From: Pseudomonas fluorescens Q2-87
GTDB taxonomy: Bacteria > Pseudomonadota > Gammaproteobacteria > Pseudomonadales > Pseudomonadaceae
NCBI RefSeq assembly: GCF_000281895.1
Contig: NZ_CM001558.1
Location: forward strand, 3,042,556 to 3,106,555
DNA length: 64,000 bases
Direction: 5' to 3'
In this document: piece after piece, positions 19,279 through 34,216 of the stretch
Position numbering within the stretch: the stretch's first letter is position 1
Layout: every line of letters starts with the position of its first letter
The notes under the pieces: generated by a model
Databases searched by the model: none
Told to the model about the DNA's origin: nothing
The model's input: the letters and a program-made list of their open reading frames with translations, nothing else
Program-made: the position numbers and the translations under genes

Positions 19279-19328
19279 CAGGCTCGTCCAGTTGATGTTG
19301 TTTTATTGGAAGACGTGCCATAGGAGAT

Positions 19329-19345
19329 AGCGAAAGCCGTGCCAA
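19329..19345 (-). promoter_or_regulatory. Sigma-54 promoter of the alcohol dehydrogenase operon
   Basis: On the minus strand TTGGCACG (-24) is followed by GCTT and TCGCT (-12). The spacing GG-N10-GC is exact, and the only departure from TGGCACG-N4-TTGCW is TC for TT. It ends about 50 bases upstream of the dehydrogenase start, and a sigma-54 activator gene lies next door. Confidence 0.8.
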
Positions 19346-19418
19346 ATCCCGCAAAGCCCCACGCCGTGGGCCTTCACGTGATTGGAACGAACACAGGAGG
19401 GTTTTTTACCGCTCAGTC

Positions 19419-19473
19419 CCGATTAGTTTTCTGATCGGTATGCAGGGGCTTGATTGAAAACCTAATCGGTATG
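19419..19473. promoter_or_regulatory. Probable activator-binding sites (UAS) upstream of the sigma-54 promoter
   Basis: CCGATTAG (19419-19426) and CTGATCGG (19431-19438) form an imperfect palindrome. CTGATCGGTATG (19431-19442) is repeated as CTAATCGGTATG at 19462-19473, 31 bases away, i.e. about three helical turns. The palindrome lies roughly 100 bases upstream of the expected transcription start, the usual distance for enhancer sites. The last copy overlaps the end of the activator gene. Confidence 0.6.
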
Positions 19474-20835
19474 TTCCCAGCGTTTCATTTTCTGCACCAC
19501 GGTTGCCTGACTCACCCCCAACGCCTTGGCGGCAAGGCGCGTGGTCTTGTGTTCGCGCAGTGCGGCGCGAATCGCACTGCGCTCGGCATTTTCCAAGACC
19601 TTGCGCAGGGGTAAGTGGGCCTCATTGGAGTTCAGTGAGTTGAGGTCGAGGATCTCCTCAGGCATATCCAACGCCTCGATAGTCCCGGTCTGATTGGTCA
19701 CCACCAGCCGTTCGACGACATTGATCAGCTCGCGGATGTTGCCGGGCCAAGCGTATTCGCACATCAGGTCCAGCGCTTCGAGGCTCCATTGGACCTGGCG
19801 TTCATAACGGGTATTAAATCTGTCGAGGTAGTAATGCAGCAGCGGTGCGACCTCCTCACTGCGCTCGCGCAGTGCCGGGATACTGATCGGCACGACGTTG
19901 AGCCGGTAATACAGGTCAGCCCTGAAACGACCTTCTGCCACCAGTTGCTTGAGGTCATGGTGAGTGGCGCTGATGATGCGCACATCGACCTCCTTCAGCT
20001 CCAGGCCGCCGACAGGAATGAAGCGGTTTTCTTCAATGACCTTGAGTAACTTGACCTGTACTGGCAGCGGCAAATCACCAATTTCATCGAGAAACAACGT
20101 TCCGTTGTGCGCCAGTTCCAGCAGGCCACGCTTGCCTTTGCGGCCTGCGCCGGTGAACGCGCCAGGGGCATAGCCAAACAGCTCGGCTTCGATCAGATTC
20201 TCGGGTAAGGCACCGCAGTTCAGCGCAAGGAAGGGTTCATTGGCGCGTGGACTGGCGTTATGGATGTACTGCGCGACGAGGGTTTTCCCGACACCGGTCT
20301 CTCCTTGAAGCAAAACCTTCACCGAGCTTGCGGCAACCTGTCGGGCCAACGAGAAGACTCGGCCGGAAACCTCCTGGTCGGCCATAAGCGGAGAGCGCAA
20401 CAGATTGTCTTGCTGACCGGCATGCAGCTTGGCGGTGCTGTTGCGCAGCTGTTTAAGCTGTTGCAACTCATCGCGCTCATGTTTCATGCGCAGCAGTTCA
20501 GTCATGTCCCGCACGGTACTGACGACGTACGAAATCCGCTTATTTACGTCGAGAATCGGCGTGGCGCTGACCAGCAATTTCTTGCCCTGGCTCAGGCTCT
20601 GCATCACCGACACCGGCCGACCTCCCTGTAATACGCGCAGTGTGGCCGATTGCGAGATGACGCCCTCCTTCACCAACTCCTGCATGGATCGGCCGATGAG
20701 CACAGCACCGCTGAGTCCAGTCAGGCGCTCATAGGCTTGATTGACCTTCAAGGTCTTGCCGTCGCCATCCGTGATGTAGACGCCGTCATGCAATGCGTTG
20801 AGCAGTTCTTCAAAACTGGCGTCGTTGACGTTCAC
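19462..20835 (-). CDS. Sigma-54-dependent transcriptional activator (PAS-AAA-HTH)
   Basis: A 457-residue enhancer-binding protein. An N-terminal PAS domain (about residues 5-110) is followed by a short coiled coil and an AAA+ domain with Walker A GETGVGKT (178-185), the sigma-54 contact loop GAFTGA (225-230) and Walker B GTLFLDEIG (245-253). A TyrR/Fis-type helix-turn-helix closes the protein (TTRLAAKALGVSQATVVQKM). There is no receiver domain, so it probably senses a small molecule through PAS. The GTG start at 20835 has AAGGAA eight bases upstream. It probably drives the alcohol dehydrogenase operon. Confidence 0.93.
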   Translation of the reverse strand: MNVNDASFEELLNALHDGVYITDGDGKTLKVNQAYERLTGLSGAVLIGRSMQELVKEGVISQSATLRVLQGGRPVSVMQSLSQGKKLLVSATPILDVNKRISYVVSTVRDMTELLRMKHERDELQQLKQLRNSTAKLHAGQQDNLLRSPLMADQEVSGRVFSLARQVAASSVKVLLQGETGVGKTLVAQYIHNASPRANEPFLALNCGALPENLIEAELFGYAPGAFTGAGRKGKRGLLELAHNGTLFLDEIGDLPLPVQVKLLKVIEENRFIPVGGLELKEVDVRIISATHHDLKQLVAEGRFRADLYYRLNVVPISIPALRERSEEVAPLLHYYLDRFNTRYERQVQWSLEALDLMCEYAWPGNIRELINVVERLVVTNQTGTIEALDMPEEILDLNSLNSNEAHLPLRKVLENAERSAIRAALREHKTTRLAAKALGVSQATVVQKMKRWEHTD

Positions 20836-20881: not shown

Positions 20882-21847
20882 TCATGCCGGTGCTTTCAAA
20901 TCCACCCCAAGCGCCCGGGCAAACGCCTTGACCAGCGGACTGCGGACGGTGTTGTGTCGCAGGATCAGATTGAACGGGGTAACGATATTGAACAGGTCCG
21001 GGCGTATGGCTCGCAACTGTCCTTGCTCGACCAGGCCGGCGGCATAGTGTTGCGGGAGAAAGCCCACGAAACGGCCAGTCTTGACCAATAACGCGACCGC
21101 TTCCACCTGGGTCGCCGAGGCGGAAAAGCCGTCGTAACGGGCGAAATTCAGTTTGTCGCGGTGGATCGCGTAGCGGTGGTTGACGCACTCATGTTCCTTG
21201 AGCACCTGGCTATCGATTTGCGCATCCGGCGTCTCGAATAGCGGGTGCCCCAGGGCGCAATAAACCAGTGAGCGTTCTTCATACAAGGCATAGTAATCAA
21301 ACTCTTCACGCTGCTGATAAACCGGCACGATTCCGGCCACTAATCGACCTTCAACTACCCCGCGCTCCACCTCATCTAGCTGGGACGCCTGAAGTTGCAG
21401 CCTTACTTTCGGTGACTCTTCGTTGATCGTTCTAAGCGCGGCAACTAGCGGTGAATGAGGGTCACTTATCGTATTGTCAATGACGCCTACGCCCAAGTCC
21501 CCAACAAGTTCGTTTTGCGCGGAACTAAGCCGGTCCCGAAAGTTGTCGACAGACGCAAAAAGATCGATCGACGCCTGATAGACCAACCTGCCCTCTTCGG
21601 TCAGGTGAAAGCCCTCGCGGCCTCGCGTGCACAGGCGCATGCCGATGCGAATTTCAAGGTCCGAGATCTGTTTGCTGATCGCTGCCAAACCCACGTTGAG
21701 TTCATTCTGGGCGGCGCTGAAACCTCCCGCCTCGACCACCGCCTTGAACACTTTGAGCAGTTTGAAGTCCAGGCCGCTGAGCGCCAACGGTGCCCGGTGA
21801 GGCGGTTTAGGCGGCGGGTTTCCGGAATTGGAAAGTGGGGTTTCCAT
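20882..21847 (-). CDS. LysR-family regulator, divergent from the argH-like operon
   Basis: A 321-residue LysR regulator with a 25-residue proline-rich leader before the helix-turn-helix (SGLDFKLLKVFKAVVEAGGFSAAQNELNVG). The C-terminal domain is of the usual ligand-binding kind. It is transcribed away from the argininosuccinate-lyase-like operon across 316 bases, making it the most probable regulator of that cluster. The ribosome site is weak (AGAGGTAA, 11 bases away). Confidence 0.9.
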   Translation of the reverse strand: METPLSNSGNPPPKPPHRAPLALSGLDFKLLKVFKAVVEAGGFSAAQNELNVGLAAISKQISDLEIRIGMRLCTRGREGFHLTEEGRLVYQASIDLFASVDNFRDRLSSAQNELVGDLGVGVIDNTISDPHSPLVAALRTINEESPKVRLQLQASQLDEVERGVVEGRLVAGIVPVYQQREEFDYYALYEERSLVYCALGHPLFETPDAQIDSQVLKEHECVNHRYAIHRDKLNFARYDGFSASATQVEAVALLVKTGRFVGFLPQHYAAGLVEQGQLRAIRPDLFNIVTPFNLILRHNTVRSPLVKAFARALGVDLKAPA

Positions 21848-22163
21848 AATGCTTATTTACCTCTGGCGCCCTATTCAACACTCTGTGCCCAACAACAAAA
21901 ACAACGCTGGCTAATAATAATGACCACAGAAAACCAAGCTTGGCAACCGCTAATAATTTTTGTATCTGGCGGCCAAGTCACTGATTTCCCGCTATTAAAA
22001 GCTGACACTTCGATCAGCCCTTTCCGCTTCGAAACTGCGCTTGTCCCCTGCCCTCGATGAATAATTAAGCCGCGTCACGCCTGGCGGATTTTCTCCGTCC
22101 AGGGTGAATGTTTCGGGCCAGACCGAACGTTTCGAGTTCGCTTCACCGATGAGGAAAACAACA
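21848..22163. promoter_or_regulatory. Divergent control region between lysR and the argH-like operon
   Basis: A 316-base region with no convincing gene. CTAATAAT occurs twice, at 21911-21918 and 21950-21957, 39 bases apart, in an AT-rich stretch that could hold LysR boxes and promoters. GAGGAAAA precedes the lyase start at 22164. Promoters are not resolved by eye. Confidence 0.45.
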
Positions 22164-23591
22164 ATGTCCCAAACCACCGACCGTCTCTGGGGTGCGCGCT
22201 TCAAAAGCGGCCCGTCCGATGCCCTGGCAGCCCTGTCGCGTTGCCCGGAACACTATTTTCGCCTGACCCCTTACGACCTCGCCGGGTCCCGCGCCCATGC
22301 CGGGGAGCTGCAACGCGCCGGGCTGCTCAGCGAAGAAGAAACCCGGACCATGCTTGCCGCCCTGGATCAGATCGGCGCCGACTTCCGCGCCGGCAGCATT
22401 GCCCCGACCCTCGACGACGAAGACGTCCACACGTTCATCGAGCGCCTGCTGACCGAGCGCCTCGGCGCCTTGGGCGGCAAGCTGCGCGCCGGTCGCTCGC
22501 GCAACGACCAGACTGCCAACGACCTGCGCCTGTTCCTGCGGGATCACGTCCGCACCCTGGCTGTCGAAGTGCTCGCCTTGCAACAGGCGCTGGTGGCCCA
22601 GGCCGAGCAACACATCGAAAGCATCTGCCCCGGCTTCACCCACCTGCAGCAGGCGCAGCCGATTGTCTTCGCCCATCATCTGCTGGCCCATGCCCAAGCG
22701 ATGCTGCGCGACGTTCAGCGTCTGGTTGATTGGGATGCTCGAACCTCGCTGTCGCCGCTGGGTGCAGCGGCCATGGCCGGTTCCGCCATCGCTCGCCTGC
22801 CCGAGCAATCGGCCAAGGAAATGGGCTACAGCGGCGTGTGCGAAAACTCCATCGATGCGGTGGCCAGTCGTGACCACGTCGCGGAGTTCCTGTTCATCGC
22901 CAGCATGCTCGGTATCAACATTTCCCGCCTCGCTGAAGAGTTCTGCCTGTGGTCGTCGCGGCAATTTCGCTGGGTCAGCCTGGACGATGCCTACGCCACC
23001 GGCAGCTCGATCATGCCGCAGAAGAAGAACCCGGACATTGCCGAGCTGGCTCGCGGCAAGGCTGGCCGCTTGATCGGCAACCTGACCGGCCTGCTGTCCA
23101 CCCTCAAATCCCTGCCGCTGTCCTACAACCGCGACTTGAGCGAAGACAAGAACGGCGTACTCGACAGCGTCGACACGCTTCTGCTGGTGTTGCCGGCCAT
23201 GGCCGGGATGGTCGCGACCATGCAGGTCAACGTTGCCGAGCTACTGCGTCAGGCGCCACTGGGTTTCACCTTGGCGACCGAAGTCGCCGACTGGCTGGCC
23301 ATGCGCGGCGTGCCCTTCAAGCAAGCCCACGAAATCACCGGCGCGCTGGTACAGGCGTGTGAGAAACACGACATCGAATTATGGGACGCATCCCCAGCGC
23401 TGCTGGCCGAGATCGATCCGCGCCTGACGCCCGAGGTACGCGATTGCCTGACCCTGGAAGCGGCCATTGCCGCCCGCAGTGGCCGGGGCGGTACCGCGCC
23501 GCAGCAGGTGCGCGAGCAGATCGGGCGCTTGAAAACCGCCCTCGCCGCCCAGCAGGCATGGACCGAAAACTATCAGGGCCTGCGCCTTTGA
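22164..23591 (+). CDS. Argininosuccinate lyase-like C-N lyase (secondary copy)
   Basis: A 475-residue member of the aspartase/fumarase superfamily, closest in layout to argininosuccinate lyase: TDRLWGARFKSGPSDAL at the start, GKLRAGRSRNDQTANDLRL, HLQQAQP and the signature loop GSSIMPQKKNPD with the catalytic Ser. Such enzymes release fumarate from an N-succinyl-type substrate. The context is not arginine synthesis but an amino-acid ABC transporter and deacetylase-fold hydrolases, so a different, catabolic substrate is likely. GAGGAAAACAACA precedes the chosen start; an upstream in-frame ATG lacks support. Confidence 0.85.
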   Translation: MSQTTDRLWGARFKSGPSDALAALSRCPEHYFRLTPYDLAGSRAHAGELQRAGLLSEEETRTMLAALDQIGADFRAGSIAPTLDDEDVHTFIERLLTERLGALGGKLRAGRSRNDQTANDLRLFLRDHVRTLAVEVLALQQALVAQAEQHIESICPGFTHLQQAQPIVFAHHLLAHAQAMLRDVQRLVDWDARTSLSPLGAAAMAGSAIARLPEQSAKEMGYSGVCENSIDAVASRDHVAEFLFIASMLGINISRLAEEFCLWSSRQFRWVSLDDAYATGSSIMPQKKNPDIAELARGKAGRLIGNLTGLLSTLKSLPLSYNRDLSEDKNGVLDSVDTLLLVLPAMAGMVATMQVNVAELLRQAPLGFTLATEVADWLAMRGVPFKQAHEITGALVQACEKHDIELWDASPALLAEIDPRLTPEVRDCLTLEAAIAARSGRGGTAPQQVREQIGRLKTALAAQQAWTENYQGLRL

Positions 23592-23648
23592 CGCCTGCTC
23601 CCGCAGCGATTGTGCCTCACCGCAAAGACCAGTTTCAGGAGCACCAAC

Positions 23649-24527
23649 ATGAGCCAGACTCAGGCAGAACAACTCCAGGCGGAACGCAAGCTGGCGGAAA
23701 ACCAGTTCGACATAACGCAGTACCAGCATGTGCCACGGCGCTACTACGGGCGGATCTTCTTCGCCTCGGTGATCGTCGTCGCCCTGCTGGGCCTGGCGCG
23801 GGCCTTCGCTGAAGGCAAGATCGAATGGTCGTACATCGGCCAGTTCCTCACATCCCAGGCCATTCTGTGGGGGTTGTTCAATACTATCGTCATGGCCGTG
23901 CTGGCGATGGCGCTGGGGATCGTGTTCGGGGTGATCACCGCGATCATGCGCATGTCCGCCAACCCGATCCTGCGCTACGTAGCGTTGACCTACACCTGGC
24001 TGTTCCGCGGCACGCCGCTGATCCTGCAACTGCTGTTGTGGTTCAACCTGGCGCTGATTTTCCCCACCATCGGCATTCCCGGCCTGATCGAAGTGGACAC
24101 CGTCAGCCTGATGACACCCTTCGTGGCCGCCCTGCTCGGCTTGAGCATCAACCAGGGCGCCTACACCGCCGAAGTGGTGCGCGCCGGCCTGTTATCCGTG
24201 GACACCGGCCAGTACGAAGCGGCCAAGTCCATCGGCATGCCGCGCCTGCAAGCGTTGCGTCGGATCATCCTGCCGCAGGCCATGCGGATCATCATTCCGC
24301 CGGTGGGTAACGAGTTCATCGGCATGGTGAAGATGACGTCCCTGGCGAGTGTCATCCAGTACTCGGAACTGCTCTACAACGCCCAGAACATCTACTACGC
24401 CAACGCCAGGGTCATGGAATTGCTGATCGTCGCCGGTATCTGGTACCTGGCCACGGTCACGGTTCTGTCCTTTGGACAAAGCCGCCTGGAGCGTCGTTTC
24501 GCCCGCGGCGCCGGCAAGCGTTCTTGA
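23649..24527 (+). CDS. Amino-acid ABC transporter permease
   Basis: A 292-residue inner-membrane permease of the polar amino-acid (HisM/GlnP) type. It has about five membrane segments and the ABC-coupling EAA loop around [36 protein letters not shown] precedes the start at 23649. It follows the lyase by 57 bases and precedes its ATPase and binding protein, so all form one uptake system. There is only one permease gene, implying a homodimer channel or an unseen partner. Confidence 0.92.
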
Positions 24528-24537
24528 GGAAAGCGAC

Positions 24538-25302
24538 ATGAGAAGCATCGTCAAGGCTGTGAGCCTGAACAAATATTACGACCAGTACCACGCGCTCAAG
24601 GACATCAACGTCGAAGTCGAGCAAGGCGAAGTGCTGTGCATCATCGGCCCGTCCGGCTCGGGCAAGAGCACCTTGCTGCGCTGCGTCAACCAGTTGGAGA
24701 AGATCGACAAGGGCGGGCTCTGGGTCGATGGCGAGCTGGTGGGCTACCGCGTGGTTGGCAACAAACTCCACGAGCTCAACGAGGCGCAGATCGCCCGGCA
24801 ACGCCTGGCCACTGGCATGGTGTTCCAGCGGTTCAACCTTTTCCCGCACATGACCGTGCTGCAAAACATCATCGAAGGCCCCTGCCAAGTGCTCAAGCGC
24901 TCGCCCAAGGAAGCGCACGAAGAAGCATTGGAATTGCTGGCCCGGGTCGGCCTGGCCGACAAACGCAACAGCTACCCGATCGAACTTTCGGGTGGCCAGC
25001 AGCAACGGGTGGCGATCGCCCGTGCATTGGCCATGCGGCCCAAGCTGATGCTGTTCGATGAACCCACTTCGGCACTCGACCCGGAACTGGTCGGTGAGGT
25101 GCTGTCGGTGATGCGCGATCTGGCGCAGACCGGCATGACCATGATCGTCGTCACCCATGAACTGGGCTTCGCTCGCGAGGTTTCCAACCGCATGGTGTTC
25201 ATGGACGGCGGGCAGATCGTGGAGGCTGGAAGCCCCGAAGAAATACTTATAAGTCCTCAAAATCCACGCACCCAAAGCTTCATTTCTGCCGTTCGAACCT
25301 AA
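24538..25302 (+). CDS. Amino-acid ABC transporter ATP-binding protein
   Basis: A 254-residue ATPase of the GlnQ/HisP type. Walker [10 protein letters not shown], the Q-loop ([14 protein letters not shown]), the signature [15 protein letters not shown] and Walker [14 protein letters not shown] are all present, with the switch His in [20 protein letters not shown] precedes the start, ten bases after the permease stop. It energises import together with the neighbouring permease and binding protein. Confidence 0.95.
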
Positions 25303-25340
25303 GCGCCGCTTGGCGCCACAACACTCAAAAGAGAACGACC

Positions 25341-26165
25341 ATGAAGAACTTCGTCATCCCAGCAGTACTCGCCAGCCTCATGGCTTGCAGCGTCAGCTTC
25401 GCCGCCCAATTGCCCGCGAGCATCAAGGACAAGGGCGAGATCGTCGTCGCGATCATGCCGAACTACCCACCGATGGATTTCAAGGACCCGGCCACCAACA
25501 CCCTGACCGGCCTGGATTATGACCTTGGCAACGCCTTGGCCGAACGCCTGGGCGTGAAGATCAAATGGCAGGAAACCGGCTTCGAACAGATGATCAACGC
25601 ACTGACCACCGATCGGGTGGACATGGTGCTGTCGGGCATGACCGACACCGCCGAGCGCCAGGCCAGCGTGACCTTCGTCGATTACTTCACCAGCGGTCCG
25701 CAGTTCTACACCTTGCAGAAGAACAAGGACATCAACGAAGCCATCGACCTGTGCGGCAAGAAAGTCGGTACCAGCCGCCGTACCACTTTCCCGGCGGAAA
25801 TCGCCGAGTTCAGCAAGGCCACCTGTGAAGCGGCCGGCAAACCGGCCATCGTCGTGATCGGCACCGAAGGTTCGGCGGACGCCCGGGCGCAACTGCGTCA
25901 GAGCCGTATCGACGCGGCCATGCAGGGCAGCGAAACCTTGTCCTATCTCAAGACCCAGGAAAAGGACATGTACAAGACCGTGGGCCAGCCGATTTCCGTG
26001 CAACTCACCGGCCTGGGCGTGAGCAAGAAAAAGCCCGAGCTGAGCGAGGCTGTCAAAGTCGCGCTGCAAAGCATGATCGATGACGGCAGCTACCAAACCA
26101 TCCTGAAGAAATGGGAATTGGAACTCGGTGCGATCAAGACCGTGACCGTCAACGCCGGCAAATAG
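25341..26165 (+). CDS. Periplasmic amino-acid-type substrate-binding protein
   Basis: A 274-residue solute-binding protein of the polar amino-acid family, with a signal peptide (MKNFVIPAVLASLMACSVSFAA) cleaved near residue 22. It carries the family stretches LTGLDYDLGNALAERLGVKIKW and DRVDMVLSGMTDTAERQ, plus Arg-Arg-Thr-Thr (about residues 150-153) where ligand carboxylates are usually bound. A small GGCGCC-rich hairpin lies just upstream. It determines the specificity of the transporter. The substrate is probably an amino acid or an N-substituted derivative, given the lyase and hydrolases in the operon. Confidence 0.92.
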   Translation: MKNFVIPAVLASLMACSVSFAAQLPASIKDKGEIVVAIMPNYPPMDFKDPATNTLTGLDYDLGNALAERLGVKIKWQETGFEQMINALTTDRVDMVLSGMTDTAERQASVTFVDYFTSGPQFYTLQKNKDINEAIDLCGKKVGTSRRTTFPAEIAEFSKATCEAAGKPAIVVIGTEGSADARAQLRQSRIDAAMQGSETLSYLKTQEKDMYKTVGQPISVQLTGLGVSKKKPELSEAVKVALQSMIDDGSYQTILKKWELELGAIKTVTVNAGK

Positions 26166-26175
26166 AACCCATCCA

Positions 26176-26247
26176 CTGTGGGAGCGACCTTGCTCGCGAA
26201 GGGCCGTGCCGGACGGCATTGACCTCGAGACGGGCCCGCTCCCACAG
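26176..26247. repeat. REP-type inverted repeat (TGTGGGAGCG class)
   Basis: CTGTGGGAGC (26176-26185) and GCTCCCACAG (26238-26247) are exact reverse complements, with GACCTTGCTCGCGAA next to the first arm. It is a Pseudomonas REP pair ten bases after the binding-protein stop and may damp read-through into the downstream genes. Confidence 0.8.
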
Positions 26248-26285
26248 GGTTGGTGATTCCATGAGAAATGAGTGGAGCGCTACTG

Positions 26286-27131
26286 ATGTCCTCGCTTAAA
26301 CCCGCCTGGCCCGACCAGCATAAAGCCTGCCTGGCCTTGGCCTTCGACCTGGACGGTCCGACCGGCGATGCGATGCTCAACGGCTCGATCTGGCACAAGC
26401 CCGAGTACTTTGGCTTCGGTGGCTATGGCCCCTATCGCGCACTGCCGCGCCTGCTGGACCTGCTCGACGCCTTCAAGATCCCGACGACGTTTTTCATCCC
26501 GGCCTGGGTCGTGGAAAACTGGCCCAGGCAATGCCAGGCAATCGTCGAACGCGGGCATGAGGTGGCGTACCACGGCTACAAGCACGAATCCTTTTACGCC
26601 TTGACGCTAGATGAACAGAAGACCGTGATGAGCAAGTCTCGCGAGGTGTTCAGCAAGTACCTGAACATCACCGCCGAAGGCTTTCGCACGCCGTCCGGCG
26701 ACTGGCGCGCCGAGACCCCGGCCATGCTGGCGGAAGCCGGCGTGATCTATTCCAGCAGCATGCGCGGCGATGACCGTCCCTATCTGGTGGACGTCCCGGG
26801 CCAGGACACCCCTTTGGTGGAAATCCCCGGCCGCTGGGAAATGGACGACTACGCCTCCCTCGCCTATACCCGCAGCCCAGACTTCCCTTCGGGACTGGAC
26901 CGTACCGCCAGTTACGAACTGACCCTGGACAACTGGTGCCGCGAATACGACGGCGCCATGGACGAAGGCTTGTGCCTGACCACCCTCTTCCACCCCAAGA
27001 TCACCGGCAAACCGGGCCGCATCCTGTTGCTGGAAAAACTCTTCGAACACATGCGCCAGCGCAATGACGTGTGGTTCGCCACCTGCCGCGACGTCGCCCA
27101 TTGGTGGCTCAAGGAGCATCATCATGGCTGA
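26286..27131 (+). CDS. Polysaccharide-deacetylase-fold hydrolase 1
   Basis: A 281-residue NodB-fold protein without signal peptide, resembling PuuE-like cytosolic deacetylases that act on C-N bonds rather than on polysaccharide. The NodB motifs are present: FDLDGP near residue 25 (catalytic and metal Asp), HGYKH with both metal His near residue 98, and RTPSGDW. GTGGAG nine bases upstream favours 26286; an ATG 18 bases earlier is possible. The next gene starts inside its 3' end, and the two products are paralogs. Confidence 0.85.
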   Translation: MSSLKPAWPDQHKACLALAFDLDGPTGDAMLNGSIWHKPEYFGFGGYGPYRALPRLLDLLDAFKIPTTFFIPAWVVENWPRQCQAIVERGHEVAYHGYKHESFYALTLDEQKTVMSKSREVFSKYLNITAEGFRTPSGDWRAETPAMLAEAGVIYSSSMRGDDRPYLVDVPGQDTPLVEIPGRWEMDDYASLAYTRSPDFPSGLDRTASYELTLDNWCREYDGAMDEGLCLTTLFHPKITGKPGRILLLEKLFEHMRQRNDVWFATCRDVAHWWLKEHHHG

Positions 27132-28011
27132 TACTCGCATTTGGCCCGACGGCTATCGTTGCGCGGTGGTCGTGACCGTCGACTACAACGACATCCATGG
27201 CATCCTCACCCAGGCCCCGGAAGTGGCCGGTCGGGACAAGACCTTGTCAGTCTGGCGATACGGCAGTCAACGGGGCGTAGAACGGCTGCTCGATCTACTC
27301 GCCGAGCTGGGCGTACCCAGTACCTGGTGCGTTCCTGGCATCGTCGGTGAAGAAAATCCCGGGCACATCCGGGCGATCCAGGCCGGTGGGCATGAGATCG
27401 CCTGCGCCGGTTATCGCCATCAGAACTACGACCACCTCACGCTCGTCGAGCAAAGCGCCGACGTCGCCAAGGGCTGCGAAGCCCTGGCCCAGCTCACCGG
27501 CAAGCGCCCGACAGGTTTCCGGATTCCCGCCGGCAATGGCGCGCCCGGATTCGTCCAGGCGCTGTACGAACAGGGGATCCGATGGTCCTCGTCCTGGCGT
27601 GGCGATGACCTGCCGTTCGCACACCCGACAGCGCCGGAGGTGATCGAATTGCCCCTGCACTATGAGCTGGAAGACGAACCCTACTTCGCCTTCAACCTCA
27701 GCCCGGCGGTCCCGCCGGGACAATCGCGGATCGCCTCCTATGGTCATACCCTGGGCAACCTTCAGATGGACTTCGCTGGGTTCCACCGATTCGGCCTCTG
27801 TTATGTATTGCGGTTGCACCCGGAAATCATCGCCACGCCGGGGCGCATCGGGCTGCTGCGCGAATTGCTGGAAGGCATCCGGCAGCATTCGGACGTGTGG
27901 CTCGCCACGGCGGATGACGTCGCGCAATGGTGGGCGGATTCGGCGATTGCCGTGGCCGATGACCATCCAGCGGCGGTGTATGAGCGCCATTACCGGAATC
28001 ACGGCGTATGA
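27124..28011 (+). CDS. Polysaccharide-deacetylase-fold hydrolase 2, lacking one metal histidine
   Basis: A 295-residue NodB-fold paralog of the upstream gene, overlapping it by eight bases with AAGGAG before the start. The first motif is VDYND, but the HxxxH metal site reads CAGYRHQ, so the first His is replaced by Ala. The third motif is FRIPAGNG. Loss of a metal ligand recalls metal-independent PuuE-type allantoinases, or the protein may pair with its neighbour. Its stop overlaps the start of the MmgE/PrpD gene (ATGA). Confidence 0.82.
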   Translation: MADTRIWPDGYRCAVVVTVDYNDIHGILTQAPEVAGRDKTLSVWRYGSQRGVERLLDLLAELGVPSTWCVPGIVGEENPGHIRAIQAGGHEIACAGYRHQNYDHLTLVEQSADVAKGCEALAQLTGKRPTGFRIPAGNGAPGFVQALYEQGIRWSSSWRGDDLPFAHPTAPEVIELPLHYELEDEPYFAFNLSPAVPPGQSRIASYGHTLGNLQMDFAGFHRFGLCYVLRLHPEIIATPGRIGLLRELLEGIRQHSDVWLATADDVAQWWADSAIAVADDHPAAVYERHYRNHGV

Positions 28012-29381
28012 GCGATATACGCGCCTGCCAACGTCTCAGCGCCATGGAACGCCTGGCGCAGTTCTGTGTGCAAACCCGGTTCGACGATTTGCCCGTGGCG
28101 CTGGTGACCCAGGCCAAGCGCCACATCCTCGACACGTTTGGCGCGGCCCTCGCCGGGGCTGGCAGCGAGGTGGCGAAACAGGCACAAGCGGTGTTTCGCG
28201 ATGAACCAGGTGATACGCCGGTGTGGGGCACCCCTTTACGCACCAGCACCGCCCAGGCAGCGATGCTCAACGGCATCTCCGCCCATGCCCTGGAGCTGGA
28301 CGACACCGGCGGTTGCGATCATTCCGGCGCCGTGGTGCTGCCGGCCGTGATGGCGGCGGTGTCGATGGCGGGCAGAGCCGTGGACGGCCGCGAGTTCATC
28401 ACCGCCGTGGTGATTGGCTACGAAATCGGCCGCCGCGTGCTGGAAGCCTGCGGCGGTTATTCGGCGCACAACGGCGCCGGTTGGCACTCCACGGCCACCT
28501 GCGGAGTGTTTGGCGCAGCCGCCGCCAGCGCGCGGTTGCTCGGCCTGGACGCCGCCCAGACCCTGTCTGCCCTCGGCATCGCGGGCAGTTTCAGTGGTGG
28601 GCTGTGGGCCTTCATCCACGACGGCTCCCACAGTAAAAAGCTCCACAGCGGCCGGGCTGCCGAGGGCGGCTTGCTCGCCGCTCGATTCGCCCAGTGCGGC
28701 ATCACCGGACCGAGCCACTTGTTCGATGACGTCTGGGGCGGATTTCTCAAAACCCTGGCTGCCGAGACTGCTGTTCCCGAGGCGCTGGATGCGGACCTGG
28801 GCCGCGTCTGGAAACTCGCCCGCTGTTCGATCAAGCCCTACGCGGCGTGCCGTGGCACCCATTCGGCAATCGACGCCCTGGGGCTGCTACTCGCGCAGTT
28901 GCAGGTGGGCGCCGGGCAGCTAGAGGACATCCAGGTAACGCTGTGTGGGTTGCTTCGGGACATGTGTGGCGGGCAGGATGTCGCCAGCCTGGCGGCGGCG
29001 CAGATGAGCCTGCGCTACGCCCTCGCCGCGCGGCTTGTGCTGGGGCACTGCCGATTGGACGCCTATGACGATGCATCACGCAGCGATCCTCGGATTGCGC
29101 ACTGGGTTCCGCGCATTCGCCTTGAAGTCGATCCGGCGCTGTCGCAGGATGGCGAGCCCATCGTGACCGTGCGGACCCTGGACGGTCGGTCGGCAAGCCT
29201 GTGCGTAGACGTTCCGTTGGGCGCGCCAGGCAATCCGCTGAGCGAAGCGGCGCTGGAGGAGAAATTCCTCAGTCTGGCCGGTCGGGCACTTAACCAGCGC
29301 CAGGCCCAGGTGTTGCTGGCCCAGCTGCGACAGGTCGAAACCTTGGAATCGGCGGCGACGCTGTATCAATGGCTGGCGTGA
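28008..29381 (+). CDS. MmgE/PrpD-family protein
   Basis: A 457-residue protein of the 2-methylcitrate dehydratase-like (MmgE/PrpD) family, which dehydrates or isomerises branched carboxylates. Characteristic stretches are AKRHILDTFGAALAGAGSE, AMLNGISAHALELDDTGG, HPSA-like SGAVVLPAVMA and GWHSTATCGVFGAAAASARLLGL. Translation is coupled to the preceding deacetylase by an ATGA overlap. No prpB/C genes are nearby, so propionate catabolism is unlikely; it should handle a product of this operon. Confidence 0.88.
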   Translation: MSDIRACQRLSAMERLAQFCVQTRFDDLPVALVTQAKRHILDTFGAALAGAGSEVAKQAQAVFRDEPGDTPVWGTPLRTSTAQAAMLNGISAHALELDDTGGCDHSGAVVLPAVMAAVSMAGRAVDGREFITAVVIGYEIGRRVLEACGGYSAHNGAGWHSTATCGVFGAAAASARLLGLDAAQTLSALGIAGSFSGGLWAFIHDGSHSKKLHSGRAAEGGLLAARFAQCGITGPSHLFDDVWGGFLKTLAAETAVPEALDADLGRVWKLARCSIKPYAACRGTHSAIDALGLLLAQLQVGAGQLEDIQVTLCGLLRDMCGGQDVASLAAAQMSLRYALAARLVLGHCRLDAYDDASRSDPRIAHWVPRIRLEVDPALSQDGEPIVTVRTLDGRSASLCVDVPLGAPGNPLSEAALEEKFLSLAGRALNQRQAQVLLAQLRQVETLESAATLYQWLA

Positions 29382-29436
29382 ACATGGCGTTGCCGGTACA
29401 GGACCCTACAGAATCTAATAAGGACATTTGCCCCAC

Positions 29437-30618
29437 GTGGCCACCTACTCCCTCGTGATACGCCGATTGATGATCTGCTCGCTGACCATTGTGGTCAGTC
29501 GCGCTATCACCAGTCCTCTGCTGACGCTGTTCTTGAGCAACAAACTCGGCCTCAACCAACAGGACGTCGGCCTGTTGCTGGGCATCGCCGTGTTCATCGC
29601 CACGTTGCTCGCGCTCTATGGCGGCTACGTCATCGACCGGCTGGACAAGCGCCAGTTGCTGATCCTGGCGATGCTTTCCAGCGCCATCGGCTTCGTCCTG
29701 CTGACCTTCGCCGAAAACCTCTACCTGACCACCGCGATCCTGGTCGTCACCGAAACCGCTTCGGCGTTATTCCTGATCGGCTCCAAGGCCATCCTCAGCG
29801 AACAACTGCCCATGGGCCAGCGGGCCAAGGCGTTTTCCCTGCGTTATACCTTGACCAACATCGGCTACGCCACCGGCCCGATGCTCGGCGTGGTGATCGC
29901 CGGGGTCTATCCGACAGCGCCCTTTCTGATTGCTGGCGGCATCGCGTTCATGAGCATTTTCCTGATGAGCGCCATTCCAAAAGACGCCGCACAGGTCCCA
30001 GTCATAGGCCCACCACCGAGTTTCCTGAAGACCCTGACCACCCTCAAGAACGACCGCACCCTGATCATGTTCACTTGCGGCTGCCTGTTCAGCACGGTGG
30101 TCCATGGGCGATTTACCTTGTACCTGTCGCAGTACCTGCTGGTGACGAATGATTCCAAGCGCGCCCTGCAAACCATGGCCGCCCTGCTCGCCTGCAACGC
30201 CATCAGCGTGATCCTGCTGCAATACCAGATCGGCCGCTTCCTCAAGCGCGAGCAGTTGCGCTATTGGATTGCCGGCGGCACCGGTCTGTTCATCCTGGGC
30301 TTGATCGGTTTCAGCTTGGCCAATAGCTTGTTGAGCTGGTGTGTGGCGATGTTCATTTTTACCTTGGGTGAAATGATCATCTATCCGGCCGAGTTCCTGT
30401 TCGTCGACACCCTCGCCCCGGAAGACTTGCGCGGCAGCTACTACGGCGCGCAAAACCTGGCCGCACTCGGCGGCGCGTTGAGCCCGGTAATCTGCGGTTT
30501 TCTGCTCCTGCATACCCCGGCGCCGACGATGTTTTATGCCCTTGCCCTGCTGACAGCGATGGGTGGGACGCTGTGCTTTATGGCCGGGCGGCGGGTGGCG
30601 CTGGGGCAGAAACATTAG
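29437..30618 (+). CDS. MFS transporter
   Basis: A major facilitator superfamily transporter of about 393 residues with 12 hydrophobic segments, resembling MdtH-type exporters. The loop GGYVIDRLDKRQLLIL corresponds to the conserved MFS loop 2-3. The start is uncertain: GTG at 29437 has AAGGAC 11 bases upstream, while TTG at 29428 is too close to it. It lies 55 bases after the MmgE/PrpD gene on the same strand and may belong to that operon as an exporter or an alternative importer. Confidence 0.85.
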   Translation: MATYSLVIRRLMICSLTIVVSRAITSPLLTLFLSNKLGLNQQDVGLLLGIAVFIATLLALYGGYVIDRLDKRQLLILAMLSSAIGFVLLTFAENLYLTTAILVVTETASALFLIGSKAILSEQLPMGQRAKAFSLRYTLTNIGYATGPMLGVVIAGVYPTAPFLIAGGIAFMSIFLMSAIPKDAAQVPVIGPPPSFLKTLTTLKNDRTLIMFTCGCLFSTVVHGRFTLYLSQYLLVTNDSKRALQTMAALLACNAISVILLQYQIGRFLKREQLRYWIAGGTGLFILGLIGFSLANSLLSWCVAMFIFTLGEMIIYPAEFLFVDTLAPEDLRGSYYGAQNLAALGGALSPVICGFLLLHTPAPTMFYALALLTAMGGTLCFMAGRRVALGQKH

Positions 30619-31990: not shown

Positions 31991-34216
31991 ATGGAAATCA
32001 CCCAAAACCACCGCCTGGTGCAAGTCGACAGCCCCCTCGGCGACAATGTCCTGCTGCTAAAGAGCCTGGAAGGCAGCGAAGAATTGGGGCGGTTGTTCCA
32101 CTATGAAGTGGACCTCACCTCCGAAGACCGGGCGATCACCTTCGACCAGTTGCTGGGCAAACCGATGGGCCTGACCCTGGAGCTGTATGACGGTGGCAAG
32201 CGCTACTTCCACGGCATTGTCTGCAGTTGCCGGCAGCTGACCGGCCACGGCCAGTTCGCCGGTTACCGCGTCAGCCTGCGGCCGTGGTTCTGGCTGCTCA
32301 CGCGCACTTCCGATTGCCGTATTTTCCAGAACAAAACCGTGCCGGACATCATCAAGCAGGTGTTCCGCGACCTGGGCTATTCCGACTTCGAAGACAGCCT
32401 CAGCGGCAGTTATCGCGAGTGGGAGTACTGCGTGCAATACCGCGAAACCAGCTTTGACTTCATCAGTCGGTTGATGGAGCAGGAAGGCATCTATTACTAC
32501 TTTCGCCACGAAAACTCCCGCCATGTACTGGTGCTGGCCGACGCCTACGGCGCCCATTCCACGGTGGCAGATTACGCCTCGGTGCCGTTCTACCCGCCGG
32601 ATCGGCAAATGCGTGAGCGCGATCACTTCTACGATTGGCAACTGGCGCGCGAAGTCCAGCCCGGCTCACTGGCCCTCAACGACTATGACTTCCAGCGCCC
32701 GCGCGCCAGCCTTGAGGTGCGCTCCAACGTGCTGCGCAACCACAGCAACAGCGACCATCCGCTCTACGACTACCCGGGTGAATACGTACAGAGCAACGAT
32801 GGCGAGCACTATGCGCGTACTCGCATGGAAGCCATTCACAGCCAGTTCGAGCGGGTGCAGTTGCGTGGCCGCGCCCGAGGGCTGGGCTCCGGCCATTTAT
32901 TCAATCTGACGGGCTACGACCGTGAGGACCAGAATCGTGAATACCTGGTGGTGGTCGCACGCTATCAGATCCGCCAGGATCCCTATGAAAGCGGGCAGCC
33001 GGACCTGGGCGAGCAGTTCATCAGCGAACTGGACTGCATGGACGCCAACCAGGCCTTCCGCCCTCTCCCGCTGACGCCCATGCCGATTGTCCGTGGGCCG
33101 CAGACCGCCGTGGTGGTGGGCCCCAGTGGCGAGGAGATCTGGACCGACCAGTACGGCCGGGTCAAAGTGCATTTCCACTGGGACCGCCACGACCAGTCCA
33201 ACGAAAACAGCTCCTGCTGGATTCGCGTCTCACAGGCCTGGGCCGGCAAGAACTGGGGCTCCGTGCAGCTCCCGCGGATCGGTCAGGAAGTGATTGTCAG
33301 CTTCCTTGAAGGCGATCCGGATCGGCCGATCATCACCGGCCGTGTCTACAACGCCGAGCAGACCGTGCCCTATGGGTTGCCCGCCAATGCCACCCAAAGC
33401 GGCGTGAAAAGCCGTTCAAGCAAGGGCGGCTCACCGGCCAACTTCAATGAAATCCGCATGGAGGACAAGAAAGGCGCCGAGCAACTGTTTATCCACGCCG
33501 AGAAGAACCAGGACATCGAGGTCGAGAACGACGAGACCCACTGGGTCGGCCATGACCGCCGCAAGACCATCGATAACGATGAAACCGTGCACGTCAAACA
33601 CGACCGGACCGAAACCGTCGATAACAACGAAACCATCACCATCGGTGTGGATCGCAAGGAAAAGGTCGGCAATAACGAAACCATCTCCATCGGCGTGAAC
33701 CGTACCGAGGATGTTGGCAGCAACGAGAAAATCACCATCGGCGCGAATCGCACCGAGAGCGTGGGCAGCAACGAGACCATCACCATCGGCGCGGACCGCA
33801 CGGAAAAGGTCGGTGCCAACGAAAAAATCAGCATTGCCAGCAACCGGACCGAGGACGTAGGCGGCAACGAGACCATCGGCATCAGCGGCAACCGTAACGA
33901 AACGGTCCAGGGCAACGAAGGCATCGAGATCAACGGCAACCAGAGCACCCAGATCGGCCAGAACGAATCCCGCGACGTTGCCCAGAACCGCACCACTGGC
34001 ATCAAGCAGAACGACAGCCTGGACGTCGGCAAGCATTTTTCCCTCACGGCCGGCGACTCCATCACCCTGACCACGGGCGCAGCCAGCATCACCATGAAGA
34101 AGGACGGCACGATCATGATCAGCGGCAAGAACATCACCATCGACGGCTCAGGCGCCATCAAGATCAAGGCCGACCGGAACGTGGTCGTCAAAGGCCAGAA
34201 GATTCTGCAGAACTAG
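31991..34216 (+). CDS. vgrG: Type VI secretion tip protein VgrG
   Basis: A 741-residue VgrG spike protein. The gp27-like part covers about residues 1-370 and the gp5 OB fold (TDQYGRVKVHFHWDR, then WIRVSQAWAGKNWGSVQLPRIGQEV) about 375-475. A long beta-helix then carries a 16-residue repeat of the form VG-NE-I-IG-RTE (nine units, nt 33569-34000). The C terminus has no extra enzymatic domain, so cargo is carried by partner proteins. It begins a seven-gene plus-strand island. No tss structural genes are in the window, so the island depends on a secretion machine encoded elsewhere. Confidence 0.96.
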   Translation: MEITQNHRLVQVDSPLGDNVLLLKSLEGSEELGRLFHYEVDLTSEDRAITFDQLLGKPMGLTLELYDGGKRYFHGIVCSCRQLTGHGQFAGYRVSLRPWFWLLTRTSDCRIFQNKTVPDIIKQVFRDLGYSDFEDSLSGSYREWEYCVQYRETSFDFISRLMEQEGIYYYFRHENSRHVLVLADAYGAHSTVADYASVPFYPPDRQMRERDHFYDWQLAREVQPGSLALNDYDFQRPRASLEVRSNVLRNHSNSDHPLYDYPGEYVQSNDGEHYARTRMEAIHSQFERVQLRGRARGLGSGHLFNLTGYDREDQNREYLVVVARYQIRQDPYESGQPDLGEQFISELDCMDANQAFRPLPLTPMPIVRGPQTAVVVGPSGEEIWTDQYGRVKVHFHWDRHDQSNENSSCWIRVSQAWAGKNWGSVQLPRIGQEVIVSFLEGDPDRPIITGRVYNAEQTVPYGLPANATQSGVKSRSSKGGSPANFNEIRMEDKKGAEQLFIHAEKNQDIEVENDETHWVGHDRRKTIDNDETVHVKHDRTETVDNNETITIGVDRKEKVGNNETISIGVNRTEDVGSNEKITIGANRTESVGSNETITIGADRTEKVGANEKISIASNRTEDVGGNETIGISGNRNETVQGNEGIEINGNQSTQIGQNESRDVAQNRTTGIKQNDSLDVGKHFSLTAGDSITLTTGAASITMKKDGTIMISGKNITIDGSGAIKIKADRNVVVKGQKILQN
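33569..34000 (+). repeat. 48-bp tandem repeat coding for the VgrG beta-helix
   Basis: Nine in-frame units of 48 bases. Each encodes about 16 residues with Asn-Glu and Arg-Thr-Glu at fixed positions; the central units are the most alike. The repeats build the triangular beta-helix spike and are prone to unit-number change. Confidence 0.85.

What the first reader, a model, noticed from the sequence alone, without database searches (positions are those of the whole stretch)
20882..30618. Possible undescribed catabolic operon: ArgH-like lyase, amino-acid ABC transporter, two NodB-fold hydrolases, MmgE/PrpD
Seen: a LysR regulator faces eight same-strand genes with short gaps or overlaps. They encode a fumarate-releasing C-N lyase of the argininosuccinate-lyase type, a polar amino-acid importer, two cytosolic deacetylase-fold hydrolases, an MmgE/PrpD protein and an MFS transporter. 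Known: EDDS lyase and similar enzymes belong to the ArgH superfamily, and PuuE-type NodB proteins open ureides or amides. Inference: the cluster imports an N-substituted dicarboxylic or ureido amino acid, hydrolyses an amide or ring, splits off fumarate and processes the remainder.
Basis: partly seen in the sequence, partly recalled or inferred. Interest (0 to 1): 0.75.

Follow-up and report, generated by a model that had tools for sequence, protein, structure and literature searches.

The report
Undescribed lyase and importer catabolic operon
Many soil and plant bacteria carry the same unstudied set of genes, which looks like a machine for importing a small nitrogen-rich acid and cutting it into fumarate and a guanidine-type compound, so an enzyme that databases call arginine-biosynthetic is probably doing something else.

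Summary
In detail: a LysR gene faces eight same-strand genes at the stated places. The cluster is widely conserved. Its eight-gene core (LysR to MmgE/PrpD) stands in the same order in 70 of 72 testable loci from Pseudomonas and Enterobacterales and recurs in Burkholderia, Caballeronia and, rearranged, in rhizobia. The MFS gene is a Pseudomonas add-on (53 of 53 loci in one group; 0 of 23 elsewhere). The lyase passes the argH model, yet 14 of 14 cluster genomes tested keep a separate ArgH. It forms one clade (100/100), keeps the catalytic residues checked, and has lost two residues invariant in the ArgHs compared. Two loci hold only lyase, importer and LysR. A guanidino-acid-type ureohydrolase lies in or beside the cluster in several lineages (P about 3e-4), but not at the window. 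Best reading: catabolism of an N-(1,2-dicarboxyethyl) guanidino compound, argininosuccinate-like but not argininosuccinate. NodB opens a ring or amide, MmgE isomerises, the lyase frees fumarate. NodB2 has lost its metal motif. The substrate is not identified. My searches of the held papers found no description of the cluster.

The parts
20882..21847 (-). LysR-family regulator, divergent from the operon
   Evidence: PF00126 and PF03466; divergent LysR found in 71 of 72 related loci with enough upstream DNA (all but L100)
21848..22163 (.). intergenic regulatory region (316 bp); no sigma-54 type -24/-12 pattern found in the window or in 15 relatives
22164..23591 (+). ArgH-superfamily lyase, apparently neofunctionalised; predicted to release fumarate from an N-(1,2-dicarboxyethyl) compound
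   Evidence: TIGR00838 531 bits vs cut-off 279.5; catalytic residues kept, two ArgH-invariant residues lost; one clade 100/100; 43% identical to the genome's own ArgH
23649..24527 (+). polar amino-acid ABC transporter permease
   Evidence: PF00528; searched as 23640-24527, start here is my reading
24538..25302 (+). polar amino-acid ABC transporter ATPase (GlnQ/EhuA-like, below their cut-offs)
   Evidence: PF00005; searched as 24532-25302, start here is my reading
25341..26165 (+). periplasmic solute-binding protein, family 3; carboxylate-binding Arg kept, alpha-amine-binding Asp replaced by Gly
   Evidence: PF00497; Gly in 18 of 18 cluster SBPs, Asp in 11 of 15 readable other SBPs of the genome; roles of the residues recalled from LAO/HisJ structures
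26286..27131 (+). NodB1, metal-type polysaccharide-deacetylase-fold amidohydrolase (probably catalytic)
   Evidence: PF01522; Asp and HxxxH kept in 17 of 17 types, the single NodB of five loci counted here
27124..28011 (+). NodB2, paralogue without the HxxxH motif; probable partner subunit or metal-free hydrolase
   Evidence: PF01522; HxxxH in 0 of 12 types that have a separate NodB2
28008..29381 (+). MmgE/PrpD family protein, distinct subfamily; predicted epimerase or isomerase of the succinyl carbon
   Evidence: PF03972, PF19305; best PDB hits B. subtilis IRG1 125 bits, IDS-epimerase 117 bits; HN in place of the HY pair of IDS-epimerase in 18 of 18 types
29428..30618 (+). MFS transporter (YdeE-like), lineage-specific add-on
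   Evidence: PRK10054 220 bits, below its cut-off of 582; next to MmgE in 53 of 53 testable Pseudomonas loci of L038-L091, 0 of 7 P. syringae-group, 0 of 16 Enterobacterales loci

Best explanation
An inducible catabolic operon for N-(1,2-dicarboxyethyl) guanidino compounds: molecules like argininosuccinate in which a guanidine nitrogen carries a succinate, but whose other end is not a free arginine alpha-amino acid. The ABC importer takes up the acid (SBP keeps the carboxylate site and lacks the alpha-amine site). NodB1, probably in a complex with the metal-less NodB2, opens a cyclised (imide- or lactam-like) or acylated form. MmgE/PrpD moves a proton on the carbon next to a succinyl carboxylate and so converts the wrong isomer. 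The ArgH-like lyase eliminates fumarate. The freed guanidino compound goes to a ureohydrolase (in or beside the cluster in several lineages; in the window strain perhaps the chromosomal homologue at 4.459 Mb). Shown by sequence: families, conservation, kept and lost residues, gene co-occurrence. Inferred: every reaction, the order of steps, and the substrate.
For: Conserved order 70 of 72. Lyase: one clade, 100/100; catalytic Arg, Asn, Thr, His, Ser, Lys kept in 38 of 38 rows (two pairs of them identical); the position of duck Asp33 is Tyr/Phe/His in 38 of 38 against Asp in 22 of 22 canonical ArgH of the tree set; the position of Gln328 is Ser/Ala/Ile/Gly in 38 of 38 against Gln in 22 of 22 (larger sets 75 vs 31). 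Separate canonical ArgH in 14 of 14 genomes. Two loci with only LysR, lyase, permease, ATPase, SBP (L235, L238). Ureohydrolase beside or in the cluster in Agrobacterium, Neorhizobium, Rhizobium, Gemmobacter, G988, G1048, G146, G718 and Erwiniaceae; of the 14 genomes, 4 have it within 7 kb where 0.13 is expected, P 1.2e-5, or 3.1e-4 with genera collapsed. Nearest solved structures of the Agrobacterium copy are 3-guanidinopropionase and guanidinobutyrase. Arginase and ornithine cyclodeaminase beside the Paracoccus cluster. MmgE/PrpD enzymes act on 1,4-dicarboxylates (PMC12290011, passages). NodB1 relatives include the HpPgdA structure, which is related to cyclic imidases (PMC9304392, passages).
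Against: No substrate, activity or growth datum. Loci of the window type in Pseudomonas L038-L091, the P. syringae group, Rahnella, Rouxiella and Burkholderia, and those of S. meliloti and Shinella, show no ureohydrolase in the DNA held, usually 10 kb on each side. In Erwiniaceae the ureohydrolase (44-47% to the Agrobacterium one) sits in a set (GldA-like dehydrogenase, ureohydrolase, LysR, then a long ORF that looks like dinG by recall) at varying distance from the cluster, so there it may be a landmark; the G146 copy is of that sort too (46%). Close homologues (65-74%) lie away from the cluster in G773, G456 and G754, so this ureohydrolase group is not tied to the cluster. MmgE lacks the second base (Tyr145) of IDS-epimerase in 18 of 18 types, against a plain epimerase. 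The Ensifer/Ochrobactrum-type loci use a different ArgH-like lyase that keeps the Asp and Gln (4 of 4), which would fit real argininosuccinate. Bosea has the importer and MmgE with an M20 hydrolase and neither lyase nor NodB in the 21 kb seen. Of the two lyase + importer loci, G606 also has a full cluster elsewhere and of R. rosettiformans I saw only 19 kb, so NodB or MmgE may be supplied from elsewhere. No known natural product of the proposed kind comes to mind.
Confidence: 0.4

Rival explanations
1. Argininosuccinate scavenging: the operon imports argininosuccinate, its spontaneous cyclic anhydrides and its epimer, and the lyase is a second, catabolic argininosuccinate lyase yielding arginine and fumarate.
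For: Lyase passes TIGR00838 (531 bits, cut-off 279.5) and its best solved relative is 6iem, an argininosuccinate lyase (511 bits; M. tuberculosis by recall). Arginase (288 bits, cut-off 227.6) and ornithine cyclodeaminase beside the Paracoccus cluster. The Ensifer-type loci carry a lyase with the ArgH Asp and Gln intact (4 of 4). Anhydride formation by argininosuccinate is recalled chemistry and would explain NodB.
Against: Asp and Gln, invariant in 31 of 31 and 22 of 22 canonical ArgH, are lost in 75 of 75 and 38 of 38 cluster lyases. A canonical ArgH is already present in 14 of 14 genomes. SBP lacks the alpha-amine Asp in 18 of 18, the Ensifer-type ones included. The Agrobacterium ureohydrolase is nearer to guanidinopropionase (285 bits) than to any arginase (108 bits or less).
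Confidence: 0.22
2. Aminopolycarboxylate catabolism: an N-succinylated amine or amino acid of the IDS, EDDS or marasmine type is epimerised by MmgE, freed of amide or lactam by NodB, and split by an EDDS-lyase-like enzyme.
For: A lyase plus an MmgE/PrpD epimerase is the known pair for iminodisuccinate (recalled; IDS-epimerase is among the best solved relatives of MmgE, 117 bits). The lyase + importer unit fits it equally well.
Against: The window lyase is far closer to ArgH (511 bits) than to EDDS lyase (6g3d by recall, 208 bits). MmgE lacks Tyr145. The ureohydrolase and arginase neighbours are unexplained.
Confidence: 0.18
3. N-acyl amino acid catabolism: NodB1 is a true deacylase that removes an acyl group from the product or substrate, and the lyase handles an N-alpha-blocked argininosuccinate-like acid.
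For: Binding protein without alpha-amine site. An M20 hydrolase (ArgE/DapE-like, below the cut-offs) is at the Bosea locus, which lacks NodB. GNAT acetyltransferase genes of two sequence groups lie nearby in ten loci.
Against: NodB and M20 are absent from the two lyase + importer loci. The GNAT genes are mostly upstream of LysR, not in line with the operon, and GNATs are common genes.
Confidence: 0.12
4. Biosynthesis: the lyase runs in reverse, adding an amine or guanidine to fumarate, to make a secreted chelator or toxin exported by the MFS protein.
For: ArgH-type reactions are reversible (recalled; also stated for ASL in PMC2779060, passages); the MFS gene resembles the efflux protein YdeE.
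Against: The binding-protein gene is in all 18 locus types compared and the importer in both lyase + importer loci, the MFS gene only in one Pseudomonas group. Ureohydrolase neighbours and the layout point to breakdown.
Confidence: 0.05

Closest known systems
Argininosuccinate lyase ArgH (TIGR00838)
   Same: Fold family, length, the catalytic residues checked; 511 bits to 6iem, an argininosuccinate lyase
   Different: Separate clade on a long stem; Asp33 and Gln328 (duck numbering) replaced in all cluster-clade members compared; sits with an importer and LysR; a canonical ArgH is present besides in 14 of 14 genomes
Iminodisuccinate (IDS) degradation: IDS-epimerase + C-N lyase; EDDS lyase
   Same: Logic of an MmgE/PrpD protein plus a fumarate-releasing ArgH-superfamily lyase (pathway recalled)
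   Different: Lyase much nearer ArgH than EDDS lyase (511 vs 208 bits); MmgE lacks Tyr145; NodB pair and ureohydrolase have no counterpart that I know of
PuuE allantoinase and cyclic-imide hydrolases (P. putida imidase, A. nidulans HxnM, HpPgdA group)
   Same: NodB-fold amidohydrolases; NodB1 and NodB2 hit the PuuE and HpPgdA structures
   Different: Far below the PuuE model cut-off (78 and 88 bits vs 424.6); tandem pair of a metal-type and a metal-less copy
[quoted passage not shown]
   Same: Family, the base His and the WH motif; 1,4-dicarboxylate substrates expected (PMC12290011, passages)
   Different: Own signature GGCDH[ST]G and HN in place of the HY pair in 18 of 18 types
3-guanidinopropionase GpuA / guanidinobutyrase GbuA
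   Same: The in-line ureohydrolase of Agrobacterium is nearest to these (285 and 259 bits) and over the TIGR01230 agmatinase cut-off (193 vs 174.3 bits; under that of PRK02190, 275 vs 302)
   Different: Its group (64% or more to the Agrobacterium copy) also has members away from the cluster, so it is not cluster-specific; the homologue of the window genome is 46% and not near the cluster

Membership tests
Argininosuccinate lyase (ArgH, TIGR00838) | Curated score cut-off of the equivalog model | tested here: met
   531.4 bits vs 279.5
Argininosuccinate lyase (ArgH, TIGR00838) | Catalytic residues of the superfamily | tested here: met
   kept in 75 of 75 and 38 of 38 cluster lyases
Argininosuccinate lyase (ArgH, TIGR00838) | Residues of the arginine subsite (Asp33, Gln328 duck numbering; role recalled) | tested here: not met
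   Asp in 0 of 38, Gln in 0 of 38; 22 of 22 each in canonical ArgH
Argininosuccinate lyase (ArgH, TIGR00838) | Cleaves argininosuccinate | not testable with these tools
   needs an enzyme assay
IDS/EDDS degradation | EDDS-lyase-type lyase | tested here: not met
   208 bits to 6g3d (EDDS lyase by recall) vs 511 to an ArgH
IDS/EDDS degradation | Two-base epimerase (His99, Tyr145) | tested here: not met
   His kept, Tyr is Asn in 18 of 18 types; residues named in PMC7347537 (passages)
PuuE allantoinase | Curated score cut-off of TIGR03212 | tested here: not met
   78.1 and 87.8 bits vs 424.6
NodB-fold metal amidohydrolase (CE4-like), NodB1 | Asp-His-His metal triad | tested here: met
   Asp and HxxxH in 17 of 17 types
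NodB-fold metal amidohydrolase (CE4-like), NodB2 | Asp-His-His metal triad | tested here: not met
   HxxxH in 0 of 12 types with a separate NodB2
MmgE/PrpD family | Both Pfam domains over cut-off | tested here: met
   212.5 and 97.3 bits vs 32.1 each
Catabolic operon of a guanidino compound | Guanidine-hydrolysing enzyme tied to the cluster | tested here: inconclusive
   ureohydrolase within 7 kb in 4 of 14 genomes, P 1.2e-5 to 3.1e-4, but none near the window cluster nor at most window-type loci, and close homologues lie elsewhere in three genomes

The most novel reading that the evidence does not exclude
A whole unknown branch of bacterial nitrogen catabolism, spread across Alpha-, Beta- and Gammaproteobacteria and in part carried by plasmids: import and fumarate-eliminating cleavage of a plant or soil guanidino-succinate that nobody has recorded, with its cyclic form opened by a two-subunit NodB enzyme (one live, one dead subunit) and its isomer converted by a new MmgE/PrpD isomerase type.
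Probability: 0.25. Interest if true: 0.75.

Novelty: new variant of a known kind. Interest (0 to 1): 0.6.

Why it matters
Genes that score as 'argininosuccinate lyase' in dozens of species (74 of the 80 loci gave a usable cluster lyase) are probably not arginine-biosynthetic enzymes, which misleads metabolic models. The cluster points to a nutrient that many plant-associated bacteria use and that chemistry may not have named; the binding protein gives a direct way to fish for it. It would also add a reaction to the MmgE/PrpD family and a possible live/dead heteromer to the NodB family.

Tried and rejected
Plain second ArgH: set aside as first choice because the two residues are lost in every cluster-clade lyase compared and every genome tested keeps a canonical ArgH; kept as a rival. 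EDDS/IDS membership: not met. PuuE membership: not met. MFS transporter as a conserved part: rejected. Sigma-54 promoter in the intergenic region: none found by pattern. Literature: searched the held open-access library; going by titles and abstract beginnings, none of the listed papers is about this cluster (searches found no paper at all; the term argH2 had no occurrence in the 15 papers listed). Subscription papers are not held. Papers seen only as passages: PMC7347537, PMC12290011, PMC9304392, PMC3484140, PMC3616915, PMC2779060. The two S. meliloti papers name SMb20706 and SMb20705, a guess of mine for this locus that I could not check because the record carries no gene table. Structure prediction was not used: a monomer model would not show a three-chain active site.

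Dropped or partial rows: five of 20 SBP loci of the genome were read in a wrong frame (L239, L240, L248, L249, L257) and left out of the 11-of-15 count; three more of the 23 SBP matches gave no locus. In one search one lyase row (L180) was misread and is read correctly. Eight of 80 loci had too little upstream DNA for the order count and four of 80 too little downstream DNA for the MFS count. The 14 genomes are 5 chosen of 41 Pseudomonas genomes with a close MmgE plus 9 from other groups, all chosen for carrying the cluster; two of them (G773, G456) have the Ensifer-type lyase, and weaker or partial hits (G1100, G929, G827, G1057, G1112) were left out. For G988, G1048 and G718 I had already seen the ureohydrolase; the end of the G718 cluster was entered by estimate (true distance about 1.3 kb, not 0.9). 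In the tree the program warns of long branches meeting (L204 with the two outlying lyases), and canonical ArgH is not one side of a branch.

Recalled and from no call: roles of Asp33/Gln328 in ArgH, of the Asp and Arg in LAO/HisJ-type SBPs, argininosuccinate anhydrides, the IDS lyase pathway, that 6iem is the M. tuberculosis enzyme and 6g3d is EDDS lyase, the dinG label, VgrG.

Full report
What is there. The window lies in a 6.37-Mb one-contig genome (G000); the best named relatives of its MmgE are Pseudomonas. A LysR gene (20882-21847, -) faces eight + strand genes: ArgH-superfamily lyase 22164-23591, permease, ATPase and solute-binding protein of a polar amino-acid importer, NodB1, NodB2, MmgE/PrpD, MFS. 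Pfam and NCBIfam agree with these labels. Gaps are 57, 10, 38, 120 and 46 bp and two overlaps are 8 and 4 bp (starts are my reading).

Conservation. One scan with the MmgE protein matched 199 stretches, of which the best 80 loci were kept. Of the 72 with at least 8.5 kb upstream, 70 show LysR (divergent), lyase, permease, ATPase, SBP, NodB1, NodB2, MmgE in this order; the two exceptions are a locus without a LysR hit over threshold (L100) and one whose ATPase match is in two pieces (L117). They are Pseudomonas (mostly the fluorescens side), P. syringae/viridiflava relatives, and Enterobacterales (Rahnella, Rouxiella, Serratia sp., Erwinia, Pantoea, Winslowiella, Acerihabitans and others). The MFS gene follows MmgE in 53 of 53 loci of the first group and in 0 of 7 and 0 of 16 of the others (76 of 80 loci had enough DNA). 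In 298 Pseudomonas genomes, the own one included, 41 have a nearly full-length MmgE of 54% identity or more and one more has it in pieces. In 397 genomes drawn from the phylum, the own one included, 9 have a NodB1 of 53% or more. Plasmid records add Burkholderia (same order), Caballeronia (same order), and rhizobial forms.

Modules. The rhizobial forms show what may be core and what optional. LysR, lyase, permease, ATPase and SBP alone make a locus in Rhizobium rosettiformans and a second locus of genome G606, which also has the full cluster elsewhere. Rhizobium sp. CC-CFT758 has these plus one NodB and a ureohydrolase, no MmgE. Agrobacterium and Neorhizobium have lyase, importer, MmgE, one NodB and a ureohydrolase in line. 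Gemmobacter has the ureohydrolase adjacent on the other strand. Paracoccus has importer, NodB1, NodB2, MmgE and LysR, with arginase and ornithine cyclodeaminase next to them and no lyase at the locus. Bosea has importer, MmgE, LysR and an M20 hydrolase. Ensifer, Ochrobactrum, G773 and G456 have the importer, NodB1, NodB2 and MmgE with another ArgH-like lyase. I infer that the lyase can act on an imported compound directly, and that NodB and MmgE widen the range to other forms of it; but for the two lyase + importer loci these enzymes may be supplied from elsewhere in the genome (in G606 they exist, in R. rosettiformans I did not look).

The lyase. It scores 531 bits against the argH model (cut-off 279.5), so pipelines call its relatives argininosuccinate lyase (for example). 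But all 14 genomes tested also hold a canonical ArgH (599-692 bits) besides the cluster lyase (505-564 bits; the two highest are the Ensifer-type ones). In a tree of 66 rows (64 different) the 38 cluster lyases form one side of a branch with support 100/100 and a long stem; the Ensifer-type lyases are a separate branch (100/100). The catalytic set (window numbering Arg111, Arg113, Asn114, Thr159, His160, Arg236, Ser281, Lys287, Asn289, Tyr321, Lys329) is kept in 38 of 38, while position 31 (duck Asp33) is Tyr 27, Phe 10, His 1 against Asp 22 of 22, and position 326 (duck Gln328) is Ser 17, Ala 16, Ile 4, Gly 1 against Gln 22 of 22. In the first comparison the numbers were Tyr 75 of 75 against Asp 31 of 31, and Gln 0 of 75 against 31 of 31. 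That these residues hold the arginine end is my recall of the duck delta-crystallin complex; searches for a held paper that states it did not give one (the passages of PMC2779060 name only fumarate-side and interface residues). The reading is: fumarate half intact, amine half rebuilt, partly with aromatic residues.

The other proteins. The SBPs of 18 of 18 cluster types have Gly where 11 of 15 readable other SBPs of the same genome have Asp (five wrongly read rows left out); by recall that Asp holds the alpha-ammonium group, and the Arg of the carboxylate site is kept in all. NodB1 keeps the Asp and HxxxH in 17 of 17 types (the single NodB of five loci counted here), NodB2 keeps HxxxH in 0 of 12. 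NodB1's nearest solved structures are an uncharacterised deacetylase (3rxz), HpPgdA (3qbu) and PuuE-type proteins; HxnM of A. nidulans, a cyclic imidase, is described as similar to HpPgdA and to a P. putida imidase (PMC9304392, passages). MmgE's nearest are B. subtilis IRG1 and IDS-epimerase (125 and 117 bits). PMC12290011 (passages) says that the known members act on a 1,4-dicarboxylate and suggests an enolate mechanism for the family. The base His99 of IDS-epimerase is kept, but Tyr145 is Asn in 18 of 18 types, so a plain two-base epimerase is not shown.

The guanidino link. The Agrobacterium-type ureohydrolase is over the TIGR01230 agmatinase cut-off (193 vs 174.3 bits) and under that of PRK02190 (275 vs 302); its nearest solved structures are 3-guanidinopropionase (285 bits) and guanidinobutyrase (259 bits). 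In 14 cluster genomes (87.7 Mb) there are 37 homologues; 4 clusters (G146, G718, G988, G1048) have one within 7 kb where 0.13 is expected (P 1.2e-5; 3.1e-4 with the two genomes of one genus collapsed). I had seen three of the four before that count, so the P value is flattering. In Erwiniaceae the gene lies about 1.2-6.5 kb from MmgE in 8 of 9 loci (the ninth, L106, is cut short), in a set of its own, which may be a landmark. The P. fluorescens-side, P. syringae-group, Rahnella, Rouxiella, Burkholderia, S. meliloti and Shinella loci show none, and close homologues lie away from the cluster in G773, G456 and G754.

How it most likely works, and how sure I am. Import of an N-(1,2-dicarboxyethyl) guanidino acid, ring or amide opening by NodB1 (with NodB2), isomer conversion by MmgE, fumarate release by the lyase, urea release by a ureohydrolase: confidence 0.40 as a whole (0.42 before I checked the report; lowered because one search shows close ureohydrolase homologues away from the cluster, and the argininosuccinate rival raised from 0.20 to 0.22). 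By my judgement it is about 0.8 likely that the lyase is not a normal argininosuccinate lyase, and about 0.9 that this is a dedicated conserved catabolic unit. The substrate is not identified. The result most against the reading is the Ensifer-type loci, whose lyase keeps the ArgH residues in 4 of 4: either the substrate there is argininosuccinate itself, or my residue argument is too strong.

Known or new. The parts are known families; the combination and the lyase clade I could not find described in the held library. I file it as a new variant of a known kind: lyase-based breakdown of N-succinylated compounds, as known (by recall) for iminodisuccinate and EDDS.

Noticed in passing
G000:C1:3577345-3582209 (L259 7346-12210): A second, divergent ArgH-like lyase (32% to the window lyase over 323 residues; 380 bits against argH) directly beside two permease genes, a solute-binding protein and a divergent LysR: a second lyase + importer unit in the same genome.
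   Followed up: partly
L172, L173, L177, L178, L182, L184, L186, L188, L192, L201: GNAT acetyltransferase genes of two sequence groups lie close to the cluster in these ten loci, four of them Sinorhizobium.
   Followed up: partly
L184 12582-14398; L099 and L111 after MmgE: A second binding protein and a PIG3-type quinone oxidoreductase follow the cluster both in Shinella and in P. viridiflava/syringae.
   Followed up: no
L092 1923-3017; L105 12946-14046: A GldA-like iron alcohol dehydrogenase lies upstream of LysR in Serratia sp. M24T3 and next to the ureohydrolase in Erwiniaceae.
   Followed up: no
window 18130-20835: An iron alcohol dehydrogenase and a PAS/sigma-54 activator (best model PrdR, below its cut-off) lie just beyond LysR; among the related loci compared only L091 and L192 had a match to the activator (35-36%) and only L184 to the dehydrogenase (33%), so they are probably not part of the system.
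   Followed up: partly
window 22164-23591: The lyase scores 511 bits against one solved argininosuccinate lyase (6iem, M. tuberculosis by recall) but 354 or less against the others, though its own genome's ArgH is only 43% identical; a possible actinobacterial link was not followed.
   Followed up: no
L188 10627-11957; L177 11409-12011: MmgE of S. meliloti 1021 matches in two pieces and NodB of one S. medicae plasmid is unannotated with a broken frame: decayed or mis-sequenced copies.
   Followed up: no
window 31991-34216: Downstream ORF of 741 aa that looks like a VgrG-type (type VI secretion) protein with a repetitive C-terminal part (my reading of the translation; not searched).
   Followed up: no
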